Source: an uncultured Prevotella sp. (GTDB lineage: Bacteria; Bacteroidota; Bacteroidia; Bacteroidales; Bacteroidaceae). From it: DNA of 10,000 bases. Shown piece by piece: positions 1 through 6,967 of the stretch. The DNA is taken from positions 1 through 10,000 of the forward strand of contig CAKQFW010000067.1 of the NCBI GenBank assembly GCA_934230965.1, written 5' to 3'. A program made the translations under genes and the position numbers. The notes under the pieces were generated by a model, which was not told the DNA's origin, searched no databases, and saw only the letters and a program-made list of their open reading frames with translations. Each line of letters begins with the position of its first letter. The stretch's first letter is position 1.

Positions 1-89
1 CATGGGTCAAAAAACGAACACGGATAGCACCGATGTAACGGATTTATCTTTTCACGGATCGTTTTTTGACACTATTCATTGGATCTTTT

Positions 90-135: not shown

Positions 136-161
136 TCGGTGAATACCATTGCTGGTGCTGG

Positions 162-187
162 AGTACAGGGCACGGAGACCCTGTACT
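162..187 (+). repeat. Type I hairpin repeat, central copy
   Basis: The 9-bp stem AGTACAGGG pairs perfectly with CCCTGTACT around the 8-nt loop CACGGAGA. It is preceded by GCTGG and followed by ACTAT, as in the other family members. It sits at the centre of the 1-357 palindrome. Its third stem pair is T-A, where other copies have A-T or G-C. Confidence 0.8.
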
Positions 188-243
188 ACTATTTTGTGGG
201 TGCAACACGGCGAGCTTGCGAGCCGAAAAATCTATTAAAATCC

Positions 244-256
244 GCGCCGGAGGCGC
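244..256. repeat. Mini-hairpin GCGCC-GGA-GGCGC
   Basis: A perfect 5-bp stem with a 3-nt loop. It is the right-arm counterpart of 90-102 and is flanked by AATCC on the left and AAAATC on the right. Confidence 0.6.
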
Positions 257-364
257 AAAATCAGAAGAATAGAGACAAGAAAAAAAATCAAAAATGAATC
301 CGTGAAAAAGATAAATCCGTTACATCGGTGCTATCCGTGTGCCATTTTTGACCTGTGCGAACAA

Positions 365-375
365 CGCCGAAGGCG
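365..375. repeat. Mini-hairpin CGCC-GAA-GGCG
   Basis: A 4-bp perfect stem with a GAA loop, just outside the right end of the palindromic element. It has the same architecture as the mini-hairpins at 90-102, 244-256 and 468-478. Confidence 0.45.
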
Positions 376-408
376 GTGAGCACCTACGCCCAAAACATGA
401 ACACAAAG

Positions 409-456
409 ATACTTTTTGGTTGCTGGAGGACGGGGCACGGAGGCCACCGTCCTACT
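409..456 (+). repeat. 55-bp-family unit with type II hairpin (427-453)
   Basis: A solitary copy of the unit that is tandemly arrayed at 6504-6751. It begins GATACTTTTTGGTTGCTGG and carries a hairpin at 427-453. In that hairpin AGGACGG pairs with CCGTCCT, followed by GG with CC across a bulged A, and the loop is CACGGAGG. The same lead sequence and hairpin recur near 4776-4823. Confidence 0.75.
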
Positions 457-467
457 TGGTTGCTGGG

Positions 468-478
468 GCGCGAAGCGC
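468..478. repeat. Mini-hairpin GCGC-GAA-GCGC
   Basis: A perfect 4-bp stem with a GAA loop, immediately after the 409-456 repeat unit. It follows a second TTGGTTGCTGG lead sequence, as if it replaced the usual type II hairpin of a further unit. Confidence 0.4.
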
Positions 479-495
479 GAAAAACGTAGGTATAC

Positions 496-522
496 AAAAA
501 AAGCCCACCTTGTGTGGTGGAC
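496..522 (-). terminator. Rho-independent terminator of the tRNA operon
   Basis: On the minus strand GTCCACC pairs with GGTGGGC (7 bp, one G-T pair) around the loop ACACAA, followed directly by seven T residues. It lies 53 nt downstream of tRNA-Gly, so it should end the tRNA transcript. The plus-strand side also carries a T-rich tail, so it may work in both directions. Confidence 0.85.
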
Positions 523-575
523 TTATATTTTTTCTTCTTACCCAATAATCAGCAACACCCTATGGTGGACTGCTG

Positions 576-648
576 AGCGATAAACGGGGCTCGAACCCGC
601 GACCCCCAGCTTGGGAAGCTAGTGCTCTACCAACTGAGCTATTATCGC
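576..648 (-). tRNA. tRNA-Gly (anticodon CCC)
   Basis: This 73-nt cloverleaf has acceptor stem GCGATAA/TTATCGC and discriminator T. The D-arm is GCTC-AGTTGGTA-GAGC. The anticodon arm is CTAGC-TTCCCAA-GCTGG, giving anticodon CCC, which reads the glycine codon GGG. The T-arm has GCGGG/CCCGT around TTCGAGC. The 3' CCA is not encoded and must be added after transcription. The gene lies 10 nt downstream of tRNA-Thr and is probably cotranscribed with it. Confidence 0.97.
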
Positions 649-658
649 GTGGTTAATG

Positions 659-731
<73 letters not shown>

Positions 732-775
732 CTTTGCAATGTGATGGTAAGCGGTAGCTTGCCGAATTGCGGTTG

Positions 776-807
776 CAAAGATAGTGTATTTTTTTTGTTG
801 TGCCAAA
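776..807 (-). promoter_or_regulatory. Bacteroidota-type promoter of the tRNA-Thr/Gly operon
   Basis: On the minus strand TTTG (804-807) is followed after 20 nt by TATCTTTG (776-783). This matches the phylum's -33/-7 pattern, TTTG and TAnnTTTG. Transcription would start near 769-771, about 38 nt before tRNA-Thr. The same spacing is seen at the serine hydrolase promoter. Confidence 0.75.
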
Positions 808-846
808 TGTTAGGCGCATTATTTTCTGTGTTCGTCAGAATTTTAG

Positions 847-862
847 CTCCCTTTAGAGGGAG
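847..862 (-). terminator. Weak hairpin after the plug gene
   Basis: On the minus strand CTCCCT pairs with AGGGAG around CTAA, just 5 nt after the TAA stop at 868-870, followed by CTAAAATT. The stem is clear but the T-tract is poor, so termination here is only possible. It may act instead as a 3'-end stabilising hairpin. Confidence 0.35.
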
Positions 863-867
863 AGGGC

Positions 868-2115
868 TTATTTCAGTTGCACATGTCGGTAGGCCACCAG
901 TCGGTCGGTGCGGCTGCCTATGGGTCGATAATAAACCAGGGCATAATAGGTGTTTTCGGTTTGAAAAAAGTTGCCATCGGCGGGCAGCGTGCGCAGCGCG
1001 TTGGGGGTGTGCAAGAGGTAGGTGTACGAGTAGTAGCCTTGCTTGAGCAGCACATCGGCCGTGTAGGCTTGCAGCTCGGGGTGGTAGGTCATGCGGTAGG
1101 TGGGTTCGAGGCTACTGTTGGTCCATTGTCCGTGTAGATATACGTCGCCAGGCTGTGGTGGGCAGAGCAGGGTGAAGCGTGTAAGGATATAGTCGGAGGC
1201 TATGTCGTTTTCAATGTTATCGCTGTTTCTGATGTAGAAGCTTCCGTTAGCATCTTCGTCATACACATAGTTGGGGCGTGGCTCGTCGGGCCACACGCTG
1301 GCCGAGAAGTGTGTGCCATCCCATCCCACGGCCTCTATGCCCATGGTGGGGTGTGTGGGGTCGAGGGTTTCAAACTTTCGGTATTCGTTTCCAGCGTTGA
1401 AGATGAGCTGCGTGTTGTGGCTCCACTTCAGCCCATCGGGCATGATAAATTGTGGTGTGGCGTTGCGTGCGGCATCATACCAATATCCGTTTTTCAGCAC
1501 CACGGTTTTTATCTCTCGGCTATAGTCGGTTACTTTATTCCCGTTATACGATAGCTGCATGGCCACCTGTTGGTGCTGGCGGTTAATGTCTTTATCGGTG
1601 TTAGTGTATGCCTCAAGGCCCAGGTTCATGGTTTGTTCGCACAGCATAAAACAGGCGGTAAGGATGCTGTCGCCCGTGTTATCGTCGGTTACCGTTACGC
1701 GATAGTTTCCGCTCAGGGTGGGGCGGCATTGGCGGTTGGGCACCTGAAAATGATAGTGGGTGTAAAGCTGTTTGGTGTTGATGCTTTTTTCTACGTCGTC
1801 GATGGTGTTGCCCTCGGTAAAGCCTTCGCAATATTCGCTGGGCAGCAGCTCTTGTGAGGGGCTCCAGTCGGCCTCGCAATGTTCAATGCTATAAACGTAG
1901 CGATGATACTCGTGTGTGAGGTCGTCGAAGCTGATGTGTATGGCCTCGTCGCCCGTTAGCGTGATGACGGGCATTGACAGCCAATTATCGCCAGCCACCA
2001 CCTGTAGCGATGCAATGTTAGGTTGCAGCAAGCGGTGGTTTTGTGCCGATGCCGTGCTGTGGGGTATGAGGTTGAGCCCGCACAAGGCTATAAGGGTGGC
2101 GATAAGATGCTTCAT
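868..2115 (-). CDS. Type IX secretion system plug protein (formerly DUF5103)
   Basis: The 415-aa product has a typical signal peptide, with a hydrophobic stretch at residues 3-18 and likely cleavage after ASA (residue 24). The mature protein is therefore expected in the periplasm or at the outer membrane. I recognise the DUF5103/T9SS plug family from several segments. These are QLSYNGNKVTDYSREIKTVV (about 187-206), GNEYRKFETLD (242-252) and a C-terminal stretch with DGNFFQTENTYYALVYYRP (380-398). In Flavobacterium a plug protein closes the periplasmic side of the SprA translocon when no PorV-cargo complex is bound; that role is family knowledge and is not shown here. The length is normal for the family and nothing looks broken. 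The ATG at 2113-2115 follows the receptor stop by 24 nt, so the two genes probably form one operon. No Shine-Dalgarno is visible. Confidence 0.85.
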   Translation of the reverse strand: MKHLIATLIALCGLNLIPHSTASAQNHRLLQPNIASLQVVAGDNWLSMPVITLTGDEAIHISFDDLTHEYHRYVYSIEHCEADWSPSQELLPSEYCEGFTEGNTIDDVEKSINTKQLYTHYHFQVPNRQCRPTLSGNYRVTVTDDNTGDSILTACFMLCEQTMNLGLEAYTNTDKDINRQHQQVAMQLSYNGNKVTDYSREIKTVVLKNGYWYDAARNATPQFIMPDGLKWSHNTQLIFNAGNEYRKFETLDPTHPTMGIEAVGWDGTHFSASVWPDEPRPNYVYDEDANGSFYIRNSDNIENDIASDYILTRFTLLCPPQPGDVYLHGQWTNSSLEPTYRMTYHPELQAYTADVLLKQGYYSYTYLLHTPNALRTLPADGNFFQTENTYYALVYYRPIGSRTDRLVAYRHVQLK

Positions 2116-2139
2116 AGAGATAAGTATAGGGTGTGTGGG

Positions 2140-4512
2140 TTAGAATTCGAATTGCAAACGTAGGTTCATCATTCGGCCCGTGAGATAGTTGGGCACGGCA
2201 TATTGATGATTGGTAACGTCGGTTACCCAATAGTATGAGTTTACGTTGTTGATGCCGAAGAGGTTGAGGCAGTCGATGCCCAGCCATATGTTTTTGCAAA
2301 ACTTTTTGATGGCGGCCTTCTCGTTGTTTATCACTCGGTAGCTGAGGCCAATGTCGGCACGCTTATAGGCGGGCGCTCTGAACGAGTTGTTCTCCATCTC
2401 TTGGTGGGGCGCCGAGAAGGGCAGACCATCGGCAAAGGCCAACTTGAGCGACATTTTCCAGCGGTCGGTATTGGGAAAATAGTCGGTGAAGAAGAAGTTG
2501 ACGGCGTAACGCTGGTCGGTGTGCAAGGGTATGCTCTTGCCGTTAAGCTTCATCTTCGTGTCCATGAGCGAGAGGCTTATCCACGAGTCGGTGCCAGGCA
2601 CAAACTCGCCAAAGAGTTTGAGGTCGATGCCCGCTGCATGTCCGCTGCATGCGTTGTCGCCATAATACACCACCTTTACATTGTTCACGCTATAGGGCAC
2701 AAAATTGCTCAGTGCCTTATAGTAGGCTTCGGCTGTAAACTTATAGGGGCGCTCCTTCACGTTGAAGCGATAGTCGAGGCCCGCAATAAAGTGCAGCGAG
2801 CGCTGGCTCTTGGCCTTTTGGTTCAGGTTGGCATAGGTTACGTGGTTCAGGGTGGTGGTGTCGCGTATCTCCTTGTAGAAGGGTGCCTGATAATAAAGAC
2901 CTGTGGCCAGGCGCAACGTCATATCGCGGCAGAAGGGGGGCACGATGCCCAGCGAGAGGCGTGGGCTGACGATGGTTTCTTTGTTGAAGCTCCAGTGGCT
3001 CAGGCGCACACCATAGTTTAGGGTGAAGTGGGTGTGCTCGTGGGCGCTGGTAAAGCGGTAGGTGTCTTGCAGATAGGCCTCGGTGCGCGTGGCGTTTAGG
3101 GTGTTATGGGCGCGCATAGAGTATATCATATACAGGTCTTTGCCTGTGTGGGGTATGCTGTAGCCACTTGAATCGCGCATCTCATATTCGATAGAGTTTT
3201 CTTTTATGCGCTCGCTCTTAAACGTTAGGGCACCCTCAAAGGCGTGGTGCGCGTTCTTGCTCTTAAATAGCAGCTTGGCGCTGGCCACGTTAGCTTTCAG
3301 GCGGTTACGGGCATGCTGAAAATAGGTACCCACGCCCAGGTTTTCGCTGGTCTCGGTTTGCGTAAGCCAGTATTGCCCTTGCAGGTCGTAGGTTTCTTGC
3401 TCTTTGGTGTGAAAAGCCGATCCTATGAGCGAGAGCGATGTGTTTTCAGAAAAATGGCGTGTGATGTTTACCGAGCCAAAGAAGGTGCGGAACACATCTT
3501 TCTCTTGACCATCAAAATATACTTTAAACTTCTTTACGTTCTCCATTGTTCCGAAGCTGGTTTCGCGGTCAGAGGGCACAAAGGTGTAGTGGTTATCTGA
3601 TATGTTGCCCATGAACGAAAGGCTCCAGCGCTTGTTGGGCTCATAGGTAAGATAGGTTTGATAATCAACAAAGCGGGGGCGATACTCGCCTGTGGTTTGC
3701 AGCGACCCCAGCATATATTGGTTTGTTTTATAACGAAGACCGTTGCTCCACGAAAAGTGCTTATTGCTTACGCCCACAAAGGCGCTGGCGCCCAGCAACG
3801 ACATTGAGGCCGAGGCCTCGAAACGTTTAGGACGACGGTAGGTAATGTCGAGGGCCGACGACATCTTATCGCCATATTTAGCCTCGTAGCCGCCCGTTGA
3901 AAAGCCTATCTTGTCTACCATGTCGGCATTAATCACCGAGAGGCCTTCTTGCTGACCGCTTCGCACCAAGAAGGGGCGATAAATCTCTACATTATTAATA
4001 TAAACGCTGTTTTCGTCGAACGAACCGCCGCGCACGTTATATTGCGACGACAGTTCGCTGTGCGTTGAAACGCCAGCTTGGCTCTGTATCAGCTCTTCTA
4101 CGGCATTGCCCGTGGTAGAGGGCATGCTCTTGGTTTGCTCTTTCTTTATCTCCTGGGTTTGGCCTGTTTGCCTACGCATCTCGGTGATGGTAACCTCTGA
4201 CAGGGTGTTGTCGCTGTGCAGCACCACCTGCAGCGTTTGCTTGCCTCGTGGGCGGCGCAGCACGCGGGTTTTGGTCTTATAGCCCACCATTGAGAAGCGC
4301 ACCACTACCGAGTCGGCCGATTGCAGCTGCATCGAGAAGTCGCCCTTCAGCGAGGTCATGGCTATCTTGCCTTGTTGCACACAGGCCACGGTGGCAAACT
4401 CCATGGGGTTCGACTGCTCGTCGAGCACCTTGCCTTGCAGCGTAAAGGTTTGGGCTTGTATGCCGATACAAGCCAACAGGGTTATATAGAAGATAATAAA
4501 CAGTCGTTTCAT
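2140..4512 (-). CDS. TonB-dependent receptor with CarboxypepD_reg-like domain
   Basis: This is a 790-aa outer-membrane receptor. Residues 1-20 are a signal peptide, with cleavage after IQA before QTFTLQGKV. A CarboxypepD_reg-like domain covers about 24-100 and includes VVRFSMVGYKT. The LSEVTITE linker (104-111) leads to the plug domain at about 120-225, with YNVRGGSFDENSVYINNVEI (158-177) and NADMVDKIGFSTGGYEAKYG (195-214). The remainder reads as a 22-strand barrel ending in LQFEF, whose terminal aromatic residue is the usual outer-membrane insertion signal. Such receptors import ligands using TonB energy. The substrate is not predictable, because no SusD-like partner or metal or heme gene lies nearby. 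The length suits the smaller, non-SusC class. It is the first gene of the operon with the T9SS plug gene. No good promoter is visible in the repeat-rich DNA upstream. Confidence 0.9.
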   Translation of the reverse strand: MKRLFIIFYITLLACIGIQAQTFTLQGKVLDEQSNPMEFATVACVQQGKIAMTSLKGDFSMQLQSADSVVVRFSMVGYKTKTRVLRRPRGKQTLQVVLHSDNTLSEVTITEMRRQTGQTQEIKKEQTKSMPSTTGNAVEELIQSQAGVSTHSELSSQYNVRGGSFDENSVYINNVEIYRPFLVRSGQQEGLSVINADMVDKIGFSTGGYEAKYGDKMSSALDITYRRPKRFEASASMSLLGASAFVGVSNKHFSWSNGLRYKTNQYMLGSLQTTGEYRPRFVDYQTYLTYEPNKRWSLSFMGNISDNHYTFVPSDRETSFGTMENVKKFKVYFDGQEKDVFRTFFGSVNITRHFSENTSLSLIGSAFHTKEQETYDLQGQYWLTQTETSENLGVGTYFQHARNRLKANVASAKLLFKSKNAHHAFEGALTFKSERIKENSIEYEMRDSSGYSIPHTGKDLYMIYSMRAHNTLNATRTEAYLQDTYRFTSAHEHTHFTLNYGVRLSHWSFNKETIVSPRLSLGIVPPFCRDMTLRLATGLYYQAPFYKEIRDTTTLNHVTYANLNQKAKSQRSLHFIAGLDYRFNVKERPYKFTAEAYYKALSNFVPYSVNNVKVVYYGDNACSGHAAGIDLKLFGEFVPGTDSWISLSLMDTKMKLNGKSIPLHTDQRYAVNFFFTDYFPNTDRWKMSLKLAFADGLPFSAPHQEMENNSFRAPAYKRADIGLSYRVINNEKAAIKKFCKNIWLGIDCLNLFGINNVNSYYWVTDVTNHQYAVPNYLTGRMMNLRLQFEF

Positions 4513-4554
4513 ACGATTAATAACGCGAAATCTTGCCGATTATTGCCCTTTTGT

Positions 4555-4629
4555 AATTCATAATTCATAATTCGTAATGGGGCTGCGCTTGTTGAATTCA
4601 TAATTCGTAATTCGTAATGGGCTGCGCTT
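4555..4629 (+). repeat. Two heptamer blocks with GGGCTGCGCTT tail
   Basis: Heptamers AATTCAT/AATTCGT occur three times in a row, then AAT and GGGCTGCGCTT, at 4555-4590. The same pattern is repeated at 4595-4629, giving a period of about 40 bp. The same heptamers and tail open composite element B at 6340-6381 and recur at 6385-6401. Confidence 0.8.
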
Positions 4630-4640
4630 AATTCACAATA

Positions 4641-4823
4641 CGAGAGCGGCGAGGCAAACCATAGTAGAACAGGGTCTCCGTGCCCTGTTCTCCAGCACCC
4701 AAACTATTAAACCCTACTTTGTTGGAGGCTGGTTGCTGGAGGACGGGGCGCGGAGACCCTCGTCCTACTTGAAGATACTCTTTTGGTTGCTGGAGGACGG
4801 GGCACGGAGGCCACCGTCCTACT
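4641..4823 (+). repeat. Composite element A: inverted type I hairpin plus two type II units
   Basis: Bases 4641-4703 match 6405-6467 at 62 of 63 positions and contain the type I hairpin 4666-4691. Its stem is AGAACAGGG/CCCTGTTCT and it is read here in reverse orientation, with loop TCTCCGTG. Two forward hairpins follow at 4740-4766 and 4794-4820, 54 bp apart. The first has a T bulge (AGGACG/CGTCCT, then GGG/CCC) and the second an A bulge. The arrangement is a head-to-head pair followed by a short tandem run. It lies between the 3' end of the serine hydrolase and the receptor. Confidence 0.85.
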
Positions 4824-4847
4824 AATTATCACTCTTCACTTAAAGAG

Positions 4848-4919
4848 GCTATAGGATTTTCCCTTTTCCCTTAAAAGCCATGCTATAGGATTTTTCACTT
4901 TTCACTTTTCCCTTTTCAC
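4848..4919. repeat. Direct repeat GCTATAGGATTTT and CTTTTCAC/CTTTTCCC tract
   Basis: GCTATAGGATTTT starts at 4848 and again at 4882. Each copy is followed by pyrimidine-rich pentamer-like runs (CTTTTCCC, CTTTTCACTTTTCAC) up to the hydrolase stop at 4920. Read on the minus strand this is a purine-rich 3' UTR directly after the stop codon. I see no standard terminator in it. Confidence 0.6.
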
Positions 4920-6230
4920 TTAAATTCTCGTGAACAGGTCTCGGCGAGGAAATTTGTGGCCATACTTTTTGCGTAGCTGTTCAAACAGGCGCATGGTATC
5001 GTTAGAGAAGTCGTGACCCTTCCAGGTGCTGGTGTTGGTAATGAAAACCCAGCACTCGCCATCGGCATATTTCAGCACCAAGGCACTGGTGCCCCCTAAC
5101 GACCCCGTGCGCACCCAAGGGCCCTTGGTGGGGGTATAGTTCCAGCCCAGCGAGTAGGCATGATCGGGCATAGGCTGCGTCATGGCCGTTATGCTCTTTG
5201 CGCTCAAAATGTCGGGCTTGCCAGGGTGGTTGTCAATGGCAGCTATCAGTCGGCTGAGTTCTGCCGCCGAAGCGCACCATGCTCCCGCCCCTTTAAGGTT
5301 CGGAATATCGTTTTCGCCATAACATTTTTGCACCATACGTCCGCTGTTGTTATATTCGTACACGGGCACCGAGCCCTGGTGCATATAATATTTTACCTCG
5401 TTAGGGCGGCGGTCTTTATAATAGTTGCCCGCAATATGAAAGTCGAAACAGCCCGCGGGCTGCAACACATGTTTCTGCATATAGGCATCGTAGGTCATGC
5501 CCGTGCGCTTTTCGATAATCATTGAAAGCAGCGTGAATCCCAGGTTAGAGTAGCAGCGTGCCGTGCCAGGTGTGAAGCCCAAGTGGCGTTTCAGCAAGAT
5601 GCTGAGCAAGGTGTGGTTGTTAGGTGGTGTGGTGAGCCTGTTCTGCATCATGATGTAACGGGTAGAGAACATAGGGTCGCCAGCATAATTGGTGAAGCCT
5701 GCCGAGTGGCGCAGCAGCTGCTCGACGGTAATATCAAAGTAGCGCTTATCTTTAATGGCCTTTGTATAGGTGGTGTCGTTCAGTATGCCTTGGGGGCCGA
5801 ACACGCGGTCGGTGAGGCGTAGGCGCCCCTCTTCTTGCAGCTTCATAATGCCCACGGCCGTTACCAGTTTCGACACCGATGCTATGCGCATAATGTGCGA
5901 GGGCTGCATCTCTATCTCGCGCTCCATGTCGGCCCATCCGTAGCCGCGAGCATACAGCAGCGAGTCGTTGCGCGATATGGCCAACTGTGCTCCGTTTATC
6001 TCCCAGCGCTTCATGTATCGCTGCATGATTGAGTCGAGGTCGTGCAGCTCGGTGGTCATGGTGATGGCGTTGGTGAGCGAGTCGTTCAGATGAAAAGGTG
6101 CCACCTTGGTGCTATCGTTTTGTGTGGGGGCACTGCTGCACGAGCAGCAACGCAAGAGCGAGATGATGGCTATAGTGATAATGACGATGACCGTAAGAAG
6201 GCGTAAGCGCAGTATGTTATAATGTTTCAT
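4920..6230 (-). CDS. Serine hydrolase, class C beta-lactamase/penicillin-binding-like
   Basis: The 436-aa product belongs to the beta-lactamase-related serine hydrolases (Pfam 'Beta-lactamase' family). Its three active-site motifs are visible. They are SVSK (118-121; nucleophile Ser118 and Lys121), YSN (227-229) and RTG (374-376), which stands in the KTG/HxG position before SLGGTSA. The supporting motif LLRHSAGFT (172-180) is also present. The N-terminus has a long hydrophobic segment (about 9-27) ending in LLRCCSCSS. This could be a lipoprotein signal or a membrane anchor, but arginine just before the first cysteine fits a lipobox poorly. The enzyme should face the periplasm or surface. Likely substrates are peptidoglycan peptides or other esters and amides; beta-lactam resistance cannot be inferred. 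The gene stands alone with its own promoter at 6269-6299 and is bracketed by the two composite repeat elements. Confidence 0.9.
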   Translation of the reverse strand: MKHYNILRLRLLTVIVIITIAIISLLRCCSCSSAPTQNDSTKVAPFHLNDSLTNAITMTTELHDLDSIMQRYMKRWEINGAQLAISRNDSLLYARGYGWADMEREIEMQPSHIMRIASVSKLVTAVGIMKLQEEGRLRLTDRVFGPQGILNDTTYTKAIKDKRYFDITVEQLLRHSAGFTNYAGDPMFSTRYIMMQNRLTTPPNNHTLLSILLKRHLGFTPGTARCYSNLGFTLLSMIIEKRTGMTYDAYMQKHVLQPAGCFDFHIAGNYYKDRRPNEVKYYMHQGSVPVYEYNNSGRMVQKCYGENDIPNLKGAGAWCASAAELSRLIAAIDNHPGKPDILSAKSITAMTQPMPDHAYSLGWNYTPTKGPWVRTGSLGGTSALVLKYADGECWVFITNTSTWKGHDFSNDTMRLFEQLRKKYGHKFPRRDLFTRI

Positions 6231-6268
6231 TTTGTTGCTTTCTGTTTTGATGCTTTTTTTAATGCATG

Positions 6269-6299
6269 CAAAGTTAGAAAAAAAATATCACATGGGCAA
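6269..6299 (-). promoter_or_regulatory. Bacteroidota-type promoter of the serine hydrolase
   Basis: On the minus strand TTG (6297-6299) lies 20 nt upstream of TAACTTTG (6269-6276), which fits the TAnnTTTG -7 box. The predicted start near 6262-6264 leaves a leader of about 32 nt before the ATG at 6228-6230. Spacing and sequence match the tRNA promoter at 776-807. Confidence 0.75.
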
Positions 6300-6308
6300 T
6301 TTTCCATG
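6291..6308. promoter_or_regulatory. Possible operator overlapping the -33 box
   Basis: CATGG and CCATG form an inverted repeat separated by 8 nt, and the left half overlaps the -33 element of the serine hydrolase promoter. A further inverted pair, ATTATCA at 6310-6316 and TGATAAT at 6336-6342, lies just upstream. Regulator binding is inferred from position only, because short palindromes like these are common by chance. Confidence 0.25.
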
Positions 6309-6339
6309 GATTATCAAAGTGGGATGGGGGGACTCTGAT

Positions 6340-6401
6340 AATTCGTAATTCGTAATTCATAATTCATAATGGGCTGCGCTTGTGAATTCATAATTCATAA
6401 T
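6340..6401 (+). repeat. Heptamer blocks opening composite element B
   Basis: Four heptamers (AATTCGT twice, then AATTCAT twice), AAT and GGGCTGCGCTT run from 6340 to 6381. A shorter block of two heptamers and AAT follows at 6385-6401. They correspond to the blocks at 4555-4629 and have the same orientation relative to the hairpin module that follows. Confidence 0.8.
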
Positions 6402-6404
6402 GGA

Positions 6405-6467
6405 CGAGAGCGGCGAGGCAAACTATAGTAGAACAGGGTCTCCGTGCCCTGTTCTCCAGCACCCAAA
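6405..6467 (-). repeat. Type I hairpin module of composite element B
   Basis: A 63-bp direct copy of 4641-4703, differing at one base. It contains the hairpin at 6430-6455, AGAACAGGG/CCCTGTTCT around TCTCCGTG, which is the family hairpin in reverse orientation. It lies head-to-head with the forward array that begins at 6504. Confidence 0.85.
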
Positions 6468-6500
6468 TATTTGAGCCCTACTTCGCTGTAGGCTGCTTGC

Positions 6501-6755
6501 TGGAGGACGGGGCACGGAGACCACCGTCCTACTTTTAGATACTCTTTTTGGCTGTTGGAGGACGGGGCGCGGAGGCCACCGTCCTACTTTTAGATACTCT
6601 TTTTGGCTGTTGGAGGACGGGGCACGGAGACCACCGTCCTACTTTTAGATACTCTTTTTGGTTGTTGGAGGACGGGGCGCGGAGGCCACCGTCCTACTTT
6701 TTAGATACTCTTGCTGCTTGTTGGAGGACGGGGGGCGGAGACCACCGTCCTACTT
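6501..6755 (+). repeat. Five-unit tandem array of 55-bp hairpin repeats
   Basis: Hairpins at 6504-6530, 6559-6585, 6614-6640, 6669-6695 and 6725-6751 are spaced 55, 55, 55 and 56 bp apart. Each has AGGACGG/CCGTCCT, then GG/CC across a bulged A, with loops CACGGAGA, CGCGGAGG, CACGGAGA, CGCGGAGG and GGCGGAGA. The linkers (ACTTTTAGATACTCTTTTTG followed by GYTGTTGG) are nearly identical too. Loop types alternate, and 6501-6590 matches 6611-6700 at all but one position, so two-unit blocks were duplicated. The array lies in the 3' region of the deacetylase operon, beyond its terminator. Confidence 0.9.
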
Positions 6756-6781
6756 TGATAATTGCTCGTAAACTTTTCTTA

Positions 6782-6814: not shown

Positions 6815-6833
6815 GAGCCCCCTCGTCCTACTT
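6815..6833 (+). repeat. Fragment of a type II hairpin unit
   Basis: GAGCCCCCTCGTCCTACTT matches the right half and trailing ACTT of the unit at 4740-4766 (GAGACCCTCGTCCTACTT). The left stem half is missing, so it cannot fold. It is probably a decayed sixth unit of the array. Confidence 0.6.
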
Positions 6834-6863
6834 TGTTACAATAACAGTTACAATAACAATAAC

Positions 6864-6937
6864 AAAAAAAGGACAACATAAACAACATTGCTTTCATACA
6901 TATAATAATTGTATCAGAAATGTTGTTTCTGTTGTCC
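6864..6937 (-). terminator. Long-stem terminator of the DUF2723-deacetylase operon
   Basis: On the minus strand a 19-bp stem with one mismatch joins 6919-6937 to 6871-6889 and is followed at once by seven T residues (6864-6870). The 29-nt loop holds an inner stem, ATACA/TGTAT at 6896-6900 and 6910-6914. The position, about 130 nt after the deacetylase stop, and the T-tract favour a terminator, although the stem is longer and more AT-rich than usual. Confidence 0.65.
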
Positions 6938-6967
6938 TCTTGTTGTTCAGCGTTGTCGTGTCTTTAT

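What the first reader, a model, noticed from the sequence alone, without database searches (positions are those of the whole stretch)
162..6751. Dispersed hairpin family with conserved 8-nt loop and covarying stem
Eleven full copies (162-187, 427-453, 4666-4691, 4740-4766, 4794-4820, 6430-6455, 6504-6530, 6559-6585, 6614-6640, 6669-6695, 6725-6751) share the loop CRCGGAGR, with GGCGGAGA once, on a 9-bp stem. The third stem pair is G-C, A-T or T-A in different copies and the sixth is A-T or G-C, always complementary. Type II copies carry one extra bulged base (A, or T in 4740-4766). Compensatory change implies that the folded form, as RNA or as single-stranded DNA, is under selection. The GCTGGAG lead and ACT tail are also kept. 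Nothing in the window encodes a REP-type transposase.
Basis: partly seen in the sequence, partly recalled or inferred. Interest (0 to 1): 0.72.

Follow-up and report, generated by a model that had tools for sequence, protein, structure and literature searches.

The report
Prevotella family of REP DNA hairpins
The eleven hairpins are small non-coding repeats of a known kind (REP elements), probably copied around the chromosome as single-stranded DNA by a transposase encoded elsewhere; the unusual point is that other bacteria keep the same loop while changing the stem.

Summary
In detail: eleven hairpins at the stated places, with covarying stem pairs and a fixed loop. Read on the other strand, every copy is GTAG + 7-bp stem + loop YCTCCGYG + CTCC, the layout of GTAG-type REP elements (pattern: 10 hits in the window, 0 in 200 shuffles). 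Two pairs of copies face each other with GTAG outside (REPIN-like, 105 bp); others stand in a 55-bp tandem array. The window's genome is not held, so its transposase could not be sought. In a genome of the same genus sample (G429) a REP-associated tyrosine transposase gene is bracketed by four hairpins with the same loop, and 70 copies are scattered through that genome (reversed-pattern control 0). In two further genomes such a hairpin lies inside a (possibly degenerate) transposase frame. Across genomes the stem changes (98.3% of cells pair; covariation 0.60 against 0.15 shuffled) while the loop stays. So: a new family of a known kind, most likely spread in trans by a subclass-2.4-type TnpA-REP acting on the GTAG strand, plus local duplication. 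Transposition itself was not shown.

The parts
160..189 (-). REP, stem TACAGGG/CCCTGTA, loop TCTCCGTG, no bulge
425..455 (-). REP, stem GACGG(t)GG/CCCCGTC, loop CCTCCGTG
4664..4693 (+). REP, stem AACAGGG/CCCTGTT, loop TCTCCGTG; left half of dimer 1
4738..4768 (-). REP, stem GACG(a)GGG/CCCCGTC, loop TCTCCGCG; right half of dimer 1
4664..4768 (.). REPIN-like inverted dimer 1, GTAG outside, folds as one long hairpin
   Evidence: 4655-4775 folds with z -7.2, 0 of 200 shuffles as stable
4792..4822 (-). REP, stem GACGG(t)GG/CCCCGTC, loop CCTCCGTG, 54 bp behind dimer 1
6428..6457 (+). REP, stem AACAGGG/CCCTGTT, loop TCTCCGTG; left half of dimer 2
6502..6532 (-). REP, stem GACGG(t)GG/CCCCGTC, loop TCTCCGTG; right half of dimer 2 and first unit of the array
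6428..6532 (.). REPIN-like inverted dimer 2; its block 6404-6548 is 90% like 4640-4784
   Evidence: 6419-6760 folds with z -9.0, 0 of 100 shuffles as stable; block duplication (D4)
6557..6587 (-). REP of the tandem array, loop CCTCCGCG
6612..6642 (-). REP of the tandem array, loop TCTCCGTG
6667..6697 (-). REP of the tandem array, loop CCTCCGCG
6723..6753 (-). REP of the tandem array, loop variant TCTCCGCC
   Evidence: not a hit of the pattern
6815..6831 (-). probable truncated REP remnant (GTAG plus 5' arm only)
   Evidence: read by eye; CGTCCTAC at 6824; not tested further

Best explanation
These are GTAG-type REP elements of a Prevotella-like bacterium, present as single copies, as REPIN-like inverted dimers and as a tandem array. 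Inferred mechanism: when the DNA is transiently single-stranded, the GTAG strand folds into the hairpin; a Y1 (HuH/tyrosine) transposase of the TnpA-REP subclass 2.4 type (RAYT group 4), encoded elsewhere in the genome, recognises the GTAG foot, the hairpin and probably the YCTCCGYG loop, and cuts at CT dinucleotides, such as the CT that directly follows the stem in all 11 window copies; the non-autonomous hairpin or dimer is thereby moved to new intergenic sites. Tandem and block duplication multiplied copies at 4640-4822 and 6404-6753. Shown here: layout, covariation, and the bracketing of a TnpA-REP gene by hairpins with this loop in a relative. Inferred: cleavage, transposition, and the presence of such a gene in this genome.
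For: GTAG-stem-loop-CTCC layout, 10 hits against 0 in 200 shuffles. Inverted dimers with GTAG outside that fold as one hairpin. Outer five pairs complementary in 59 of 63 hits to a pattern that does not demand it, against 1 of 18 and 0 of 15 in isolated hits. 47-row alignment: 98.3% paired, score 0.601 against 0.154, 0 of 500. G429: TnpA-REP (NF047646 82.8 bits, cut-off 80; best solved relative 4er8 TnpArep) with three hairpins of loop CCTCCGTG before and one after it, 70 copies in the genome, control 0. [quoted passage not shown] G1024: one before the HuH motif of such a frame with an inverted partner between the motifs. GTAG hairpins within 400 bp of 16 of 29 Prevotella-sample transposase frames, 67 hits in 40 kb near against 11 in 53 kb far; changed feet give 5 of 29. 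T-G pairs that pair only on the GTAG strand in 43 of 70 G429 copies.
Against: The window's genome is not held. G756 (16 hits) and G006 (26 hits) show no clear subclass-2.4 gene, and G003 and G007 no Y1 match at all. In Leyella stercorea G002 only three copies, all on one contig, were found, and its REP-type transposase is flanked by a different hairpin. The G004 and G1024 frames look incomplete (105 aa; a stop within the match). Window stems lack the three leading G-C pairs that Quentin 2018 gives for canonical subclass-2.4 REPs. No empty site was found. The copies in the tandem array and duplicated block need no transposition.
Confidence: 0.85

Rival explanations
1. The hairpins act as RNA (terminators, mRNA-stabilising or regulatory hairpins) and selection keeps the folded RNA.
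For: 9 of 11 copies have the GTAG strand in the direction of the neighbouring minus-strand genes; T-G pairs would also pair as G-U in RNA; 3 of 11 copies are flagged by a loose terminator scan.
Against: The 3 flagged copies are read on the strand opposite to GTAG, with weak tails such as ACTATTTTGT, and the scan finds 23 sites against 11.7 in shuffles. No Rfam family matches besides two tRNAs. Two copies are inverted. The GTAG foot and the placing around and inside TnpA-REP genes are not explained. A later role as RNA, as discussed for other REPs, is not excluded.
Confidence: 0.1
2. Most copies are passive: an old REP was multiplied by tandem and block duplication, with no present transposition.
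For: 6502-6753 is a tandem array with 55-56-bp steps; blocks 4640-4784 and 6404-6548 are 90% alike over 145 nt.
Against: Three stem types with compensated changes and copies in a third intergenic space at 160-455. It speaks to copy number, not to what the element is. 70 scattered copies in G429.
Confidence: 0.3
3. They belong to a subclass-1.2-like Y1 transposase or another IS200-type element rather than to TnpA-REP.
For: G756 (16 hits) has one such gene with a degenerate copy about 150 bp before it; G002 and G787 have such genes too.
Against: In G756 and G002 these genes are flanked by another palindrome (GCGCCCT..AGGGCAAAAGC). Quentin 2018 reports no REPs for subclass 1.2. G429, G004 and G1024 link the loop to REP-type genes.
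Confidence: 0.05

Closest known systems
GTAG REP elements (Di Nocera 2013, PMC3733652: abstract, section on GTAG families and passages seen)
   Same: GTAG at one foot, 6-13-bp stem, subfamilies with alternative complementary stem residues, occasional 1-bp bulge, single copies, HH dimers and clusters, intergenic.
   Different: 8-nt loop against mostly 2-4 nt; the one mention of Bacteroidetes in its text is for CGTC repeats (its figure was not seen); a conserved CTCC tail, AGC or AAC after it.
REPINs of Pseudomonas (Bertels and Rainey 2011, PMC3116915, passages seen)
   Same: Two inverted REPs that fold into one long hairpin; compensatory changes; tandem arrays of REPs.
   Different: Only two dimers in the window; excision not tested.
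TnpA-REP subclass 2.4 REPtrons (Quentin 2018, PMC6006769; abstract, sections 12 and part of 15, passages seen) = RAYT group 4
   Same: Listed for Bacteroidetes and other phyla; GTAG REPs flank the gene (G429) or lie inside it (G004, G1024).
   Different: Formal subclass profile not available here; Y motifs depart (YIFTNP, YVNNNA, YIENNG against YIxNNP); window stems do not begin with three G-C pairs.
E. coli, S. maltophilia and Marinomonas REPtrons (PMC8266576, passages seen)
   Same: GTAG foot on the recognised strand, CT available beside the hairpin.
   Different: Other stems and loops; E. coli needs a mismatch bulge and is tolerant in the upper half, the two group-3 systems read some loop positions.

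Membership tests
GTAG REP element | GTAG at the 5' foot of a hairpin | tested here: met
   11 of 11 window copies
GTAG REP element | Palindromic stem of about 6-13 bp with compensated variation | tested here: met
GTAG REP element | Repeated, mostly intergenic copies | tested here: met
   11 copies in three intergenic spaces of the window; genome-wide number not testable
GTAG REP element | Cognate TnpA-REP (RAYT) in the same genome | not testable with these tools
   genome not held; met in G429 with the same loop
REPIN | Two REPs in inverted orientation forming one long hairpin | tested here: met
   4664-4768 and 6428-6532
REPIN | Moves as a unit | not testable with these tools
   no strain comparison; no empty site found
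REPs of TnpA-REP subclass 2.4 | REPs flank or lie inside a transposase with NH[IFV]H, WQ and YIxNNP | tested here: inconclusive
   relatives only: G429 (NHIH, WQ, YIFTNP), G004 (NHVH, WQ, YVNNNA), G1024 (NHIH, WQ, YIENNG); not for the window
REPs of TnpA-REP subclass 2.4 | Stem bottom of three consecutive G-C pairs (canonical long type) | tested here: not met
   window stems begin GAC, AAC or TAC; G429, G756 and Bacillota-record copies begin GGG or GGA
Intrinsic terminator | Stem followed directly by a T tract | tested here: not met
   8 of 11 not flagged; 3 weakly flagged without a clean T run
Known Rfam RNA family | Covariance-model match at gathering score | tested here: not met
   only two tRNAs in the window

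The most novel reading that the evidence does not exclude
The loop, not the stem, is the family's recognition tag: GTAG REPs with the same YCTCCGYG loop on unrelated complementary stems occur in Prevotella and in genomes from Clostridium/Ruminococcus-type records, linked to transposases that are not each other's closest relatives in the tree. That would be a loop-reading code kept, or reached more than once, across phyla.
Probability: 0.35. Interest if true: 0.55.

Novelty: new member of a known kind. Interest (0 to 1): 0.38.

Why it matters
It puts GTAG REPs, REPIN-like dimers and a complete REPtron in the genus of a dominant gut group, for which the survey text read here names no GTAG family. 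Because stems vary while the loop stays, the family is a natural experiment on what a TnpA-REP reads in a single-stranded hairpin: foot, stem shape or loop. It also warns that covarying REP hairpins can be taken for structured RNAs in microbiome screens.

Tried and rejected
Own genome and its transposase: not held. Family scan: 6 of 399 genomes hit, G002 convincing, one other (L039) pairs only with a bulge. Genus scan: 13 of 398 hit; G756 and G670 look real. Order scan of G007: 6 of 245; G007, G1024 and G880 pair, G838 (2 hits), G913 and G937 do not. Subclass 1.2 as the transposase: dropped. Empty-site test: in 30 fetched relatives no hydrolase gene was found within the fetched flanks, so the intergenic site could not be matched. 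Hairpin strings in papers: 0, which says little because figures and supplements are not searched.

Rows left out. I grouped sources after seeing their hits; single-hit genomes G670 and G004 were put with the carriers because of their stems (without them 57 of 61); L004, L005 and L019 (cyanobacterial, CSSED10-310 and Chloroflexi titles) were in neither group; of 26 G006 hits 19 were fetched and 18 distinct counted. A2: 47 rows; left out were 7 of the 18 G006 hits, 8 of the 16 G756 hits, among them one with an unpaired 3' arm (L290), both unpaired G838 hits, the L007 copy at 1577 that has lost its foot, and duplicates. In one search two of the five measures do not stand out from shuffles clearly (doubly changed pairs 94 of 500, pair types 26 of 500). 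One search used a pairing filter and is not evidence for pairing by itself; 30 loci, one (L319) without a frame found.
Full report
What is there. The window comes from a Prevotella-like bacterium: the best listed relatives of its TonB receptor are unnamed (97%), and named ones are from Prevotella sp. (79%) and Leyella stercorea (77%). Its larger genes, all on the minus strand, are a T9SS plug-like protein, a TonB-dependent receptor, a beta-lactamase-family protein, a polysaccharide deacetylase and a large membrane protein that I call DUF2723-like from recall (Pfam gives only a sub-threshold MFS_1 match), with tRNA-Gly and tRNA-Thr. The eleven hairpins sit in three spaces between these genes.

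The strand. Read on the opposite strand, each copy is GTAG, a 7-bp stem, the loop YCTCCGYG (TCTCCGCC in one), the complementary arm, and CTCC. A pattern of this layout finds ten copies in the window and none in 200 dinucleotide-preserving shuffles. Nine copies read this way on the minus strand and two on the plus strand (4664, 6428). In TnpA-REP of other bacteria the GTAG motif matters and cleavage is at CT beside the hairpin, with AG-CT complementarity proposed as a guide (PMC8266576, passages seen); that this holds here is inference.

Arrangement. 4664-4693 with 4738-4768, and 6428-6457 with 6502-6532, are inverted pairs with GTAG outside, each 105 bp, joining an unbulged and a bulged copy. 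The stretches around them fold as one long hairpin (z -7.2 and -9.0; 0 of 200 and 0 of 100 shuffles as stable), as in REPINs (PMC3116915, passages seen). Behind the second pair stands a tandem array with 55-56-bp steps, and the two pairs lie in 145-nt blocks 90% alike. So part of the copy number is local duplication.

Covariation. The window alone has seven distinct sequences: 98.0% of cells pair, two pairs change on both sides, score 0.286 against 0.095 (1 of 500 shuffles as high; the number of doubly changed pairs is reached by 48 of 500). Other genomes decide it. Scans gave genomes in which the same foot and loop stand on other stems: CGTCGGG (G006), GGGCGGG (G756, G670, G007, G1024), GGGAGGG (G880, G1024, G003, G004), GGACAGG (G007). 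Because filters for pairing, I made an unselected count with a pattern that fixes only GTAG, the inner GG/CC and the loop. The outer five pairs were complementary (at least four; five if a bulge is used) in 59 of 63 distinct hits from eleven sources (window 10/10, L007 2/2, G006 18/18, G756 14/16, G670 1/1, G1024 4/4, G880 4/4, G838 0/2, G007 3/3, G003 2/2, G004 1/1), against 1 of 18 and 0 of 15 among isolated hits. On 47 aligned rows (41 distinct) 98.3% of cells pair, five of seven pairs change on both sides, score 0.601 against 0.154, 0 of 500; slid versions pair in 44-55% of cells. Two cruder measures are less clear (94 and 26 of 500 shuffles reach them). Rows are related copies, so shuffle counts are not probabilities.

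The transposase. The window has none and its genome is not held. In the genus sample a profile of REP-type transposases hits 54 of 398 genomes. Of 30 loci fetched, 29 had a frame and 16 have GTAG/GTGG hairpins within 400 bp, with many different loops; hairpins are denser there (67 in 40 kb) than further out (11 in 53 kb), and with two other four-letter feet 5 of 29 loci ring. One of them, G429, has the window's loop: three hairpins before and one after a 180-aa frame that passes the curated cut-off for REP-associated tyrosine transposase (82.8 against 80 bits) and has TnpArep 4er8 as its best solved relative (E 2.1e-5). That genome has 70 copies within three mismatches, 33 forward and 37 reverse, control 0. 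Among them 18 have a both-sides change that still pairs and none a both-sides change that fails; 16 of 490 cells are unpaired; the loop is CCTCCGTG in 42 of 70. In 43 of 70 one pair is T-G, which would be A-C on the other strand, so the GTAG strand is the one kept foldable; this fits single-stranded DNA and would also fit RNA of that strand. [quoted passage not shown] in G1024 it lies before the HuH motif, with an inverted partner of loop TTCCAC between the motifs. Both frames look incomplete (105 aa; a stop within the match). Quentin 2018 (PMC6006769, parts seen) reports REPs inside the gene as unique to subclass 2.4.

Against. G756 (16 hits) and G006 (26 hits) show no clear subclass-2.4 gene; G003 and G007 show no Y1 match. 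In Leyella stercorea, a related carrier, three copies on one contig were found, and its REP-type transposase is flanked by a different hairpin pair. The window stems lack the three leading G-C pairs of canonical subclass-2.4 REPs. No empty site was found.

Loop. In a tree of 37 transposases the G429 gene groups with Prevotella-sample genes (sister L341, 100/91; with L317 and L343, whose loops are YCCCGT and CCCCGT, 85/24) and not with L300 and L308, which carry the same loop. A shared loop without closest shared transposase may mean an old loop, convergence or capture; the tree has open forks and long branches, is midpoint-rooted, and no clade test was run.

Verdict. A new family of GTAG REPs with REPIN-like dimers: a new member of a known kind.

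Noticed in passing
window 5-52 and 306-353: 48-nt inverted repeat, 94% complementary, with a second one nested (86-119 and 227-260), enclosing the REP at 160-189; looks like a miniature element.
   Followed up: no
window 4544-4621 and 6336-6404: Repeats of AATTCATAATTCGTAATGGG type beside both REP clusters (D5 and D7).
   Followed up: no
window 6861-6892 and 6916-6947: 32-nt inverted repeat, 88% complementary, beyond the array.
   Followed up: no
L007:1477-1604: A group II intron end (RF00029, 1477-1576) directly abuts a REP that begins at 1577 and has lost its GTAG foot; a 464-aa frame upstream looks like its reverse transcriptase (by eye). IS elements are known to target REPs (PMC1525189, passages seen).
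   Followed up: partly
L096:1236-2192 and L025:1165-2290: Subclass-1.2-like Y1 genes (YxxxQxEHH) in G756 and Leyella stercorea, both flanked by GCGCCCT..AGGGCAAAAGC palindromes, although this subclass is reported without REPs.
   Followed up: partly
L029:1084-1885: REP-type transposase of Leyella stercorea with inverted pairs of a GGGGACGCCCTCGTCCCC hairpin without GTAG foot on both sides.
   Followed up: partly
L193:436-1908: IMG/VR contig 3300015199_000009 with four GTAG hairpins of loop CCTCCGYG on stems CGCCCGG and CGTCCGA.
   Followed up: no
L262-L279 (G006): Many copies form inverted dimers with a second GTAG hairpin of another loop (TTCCAC or TCCC type), like mosaic REP pairs.
   Followed up: no
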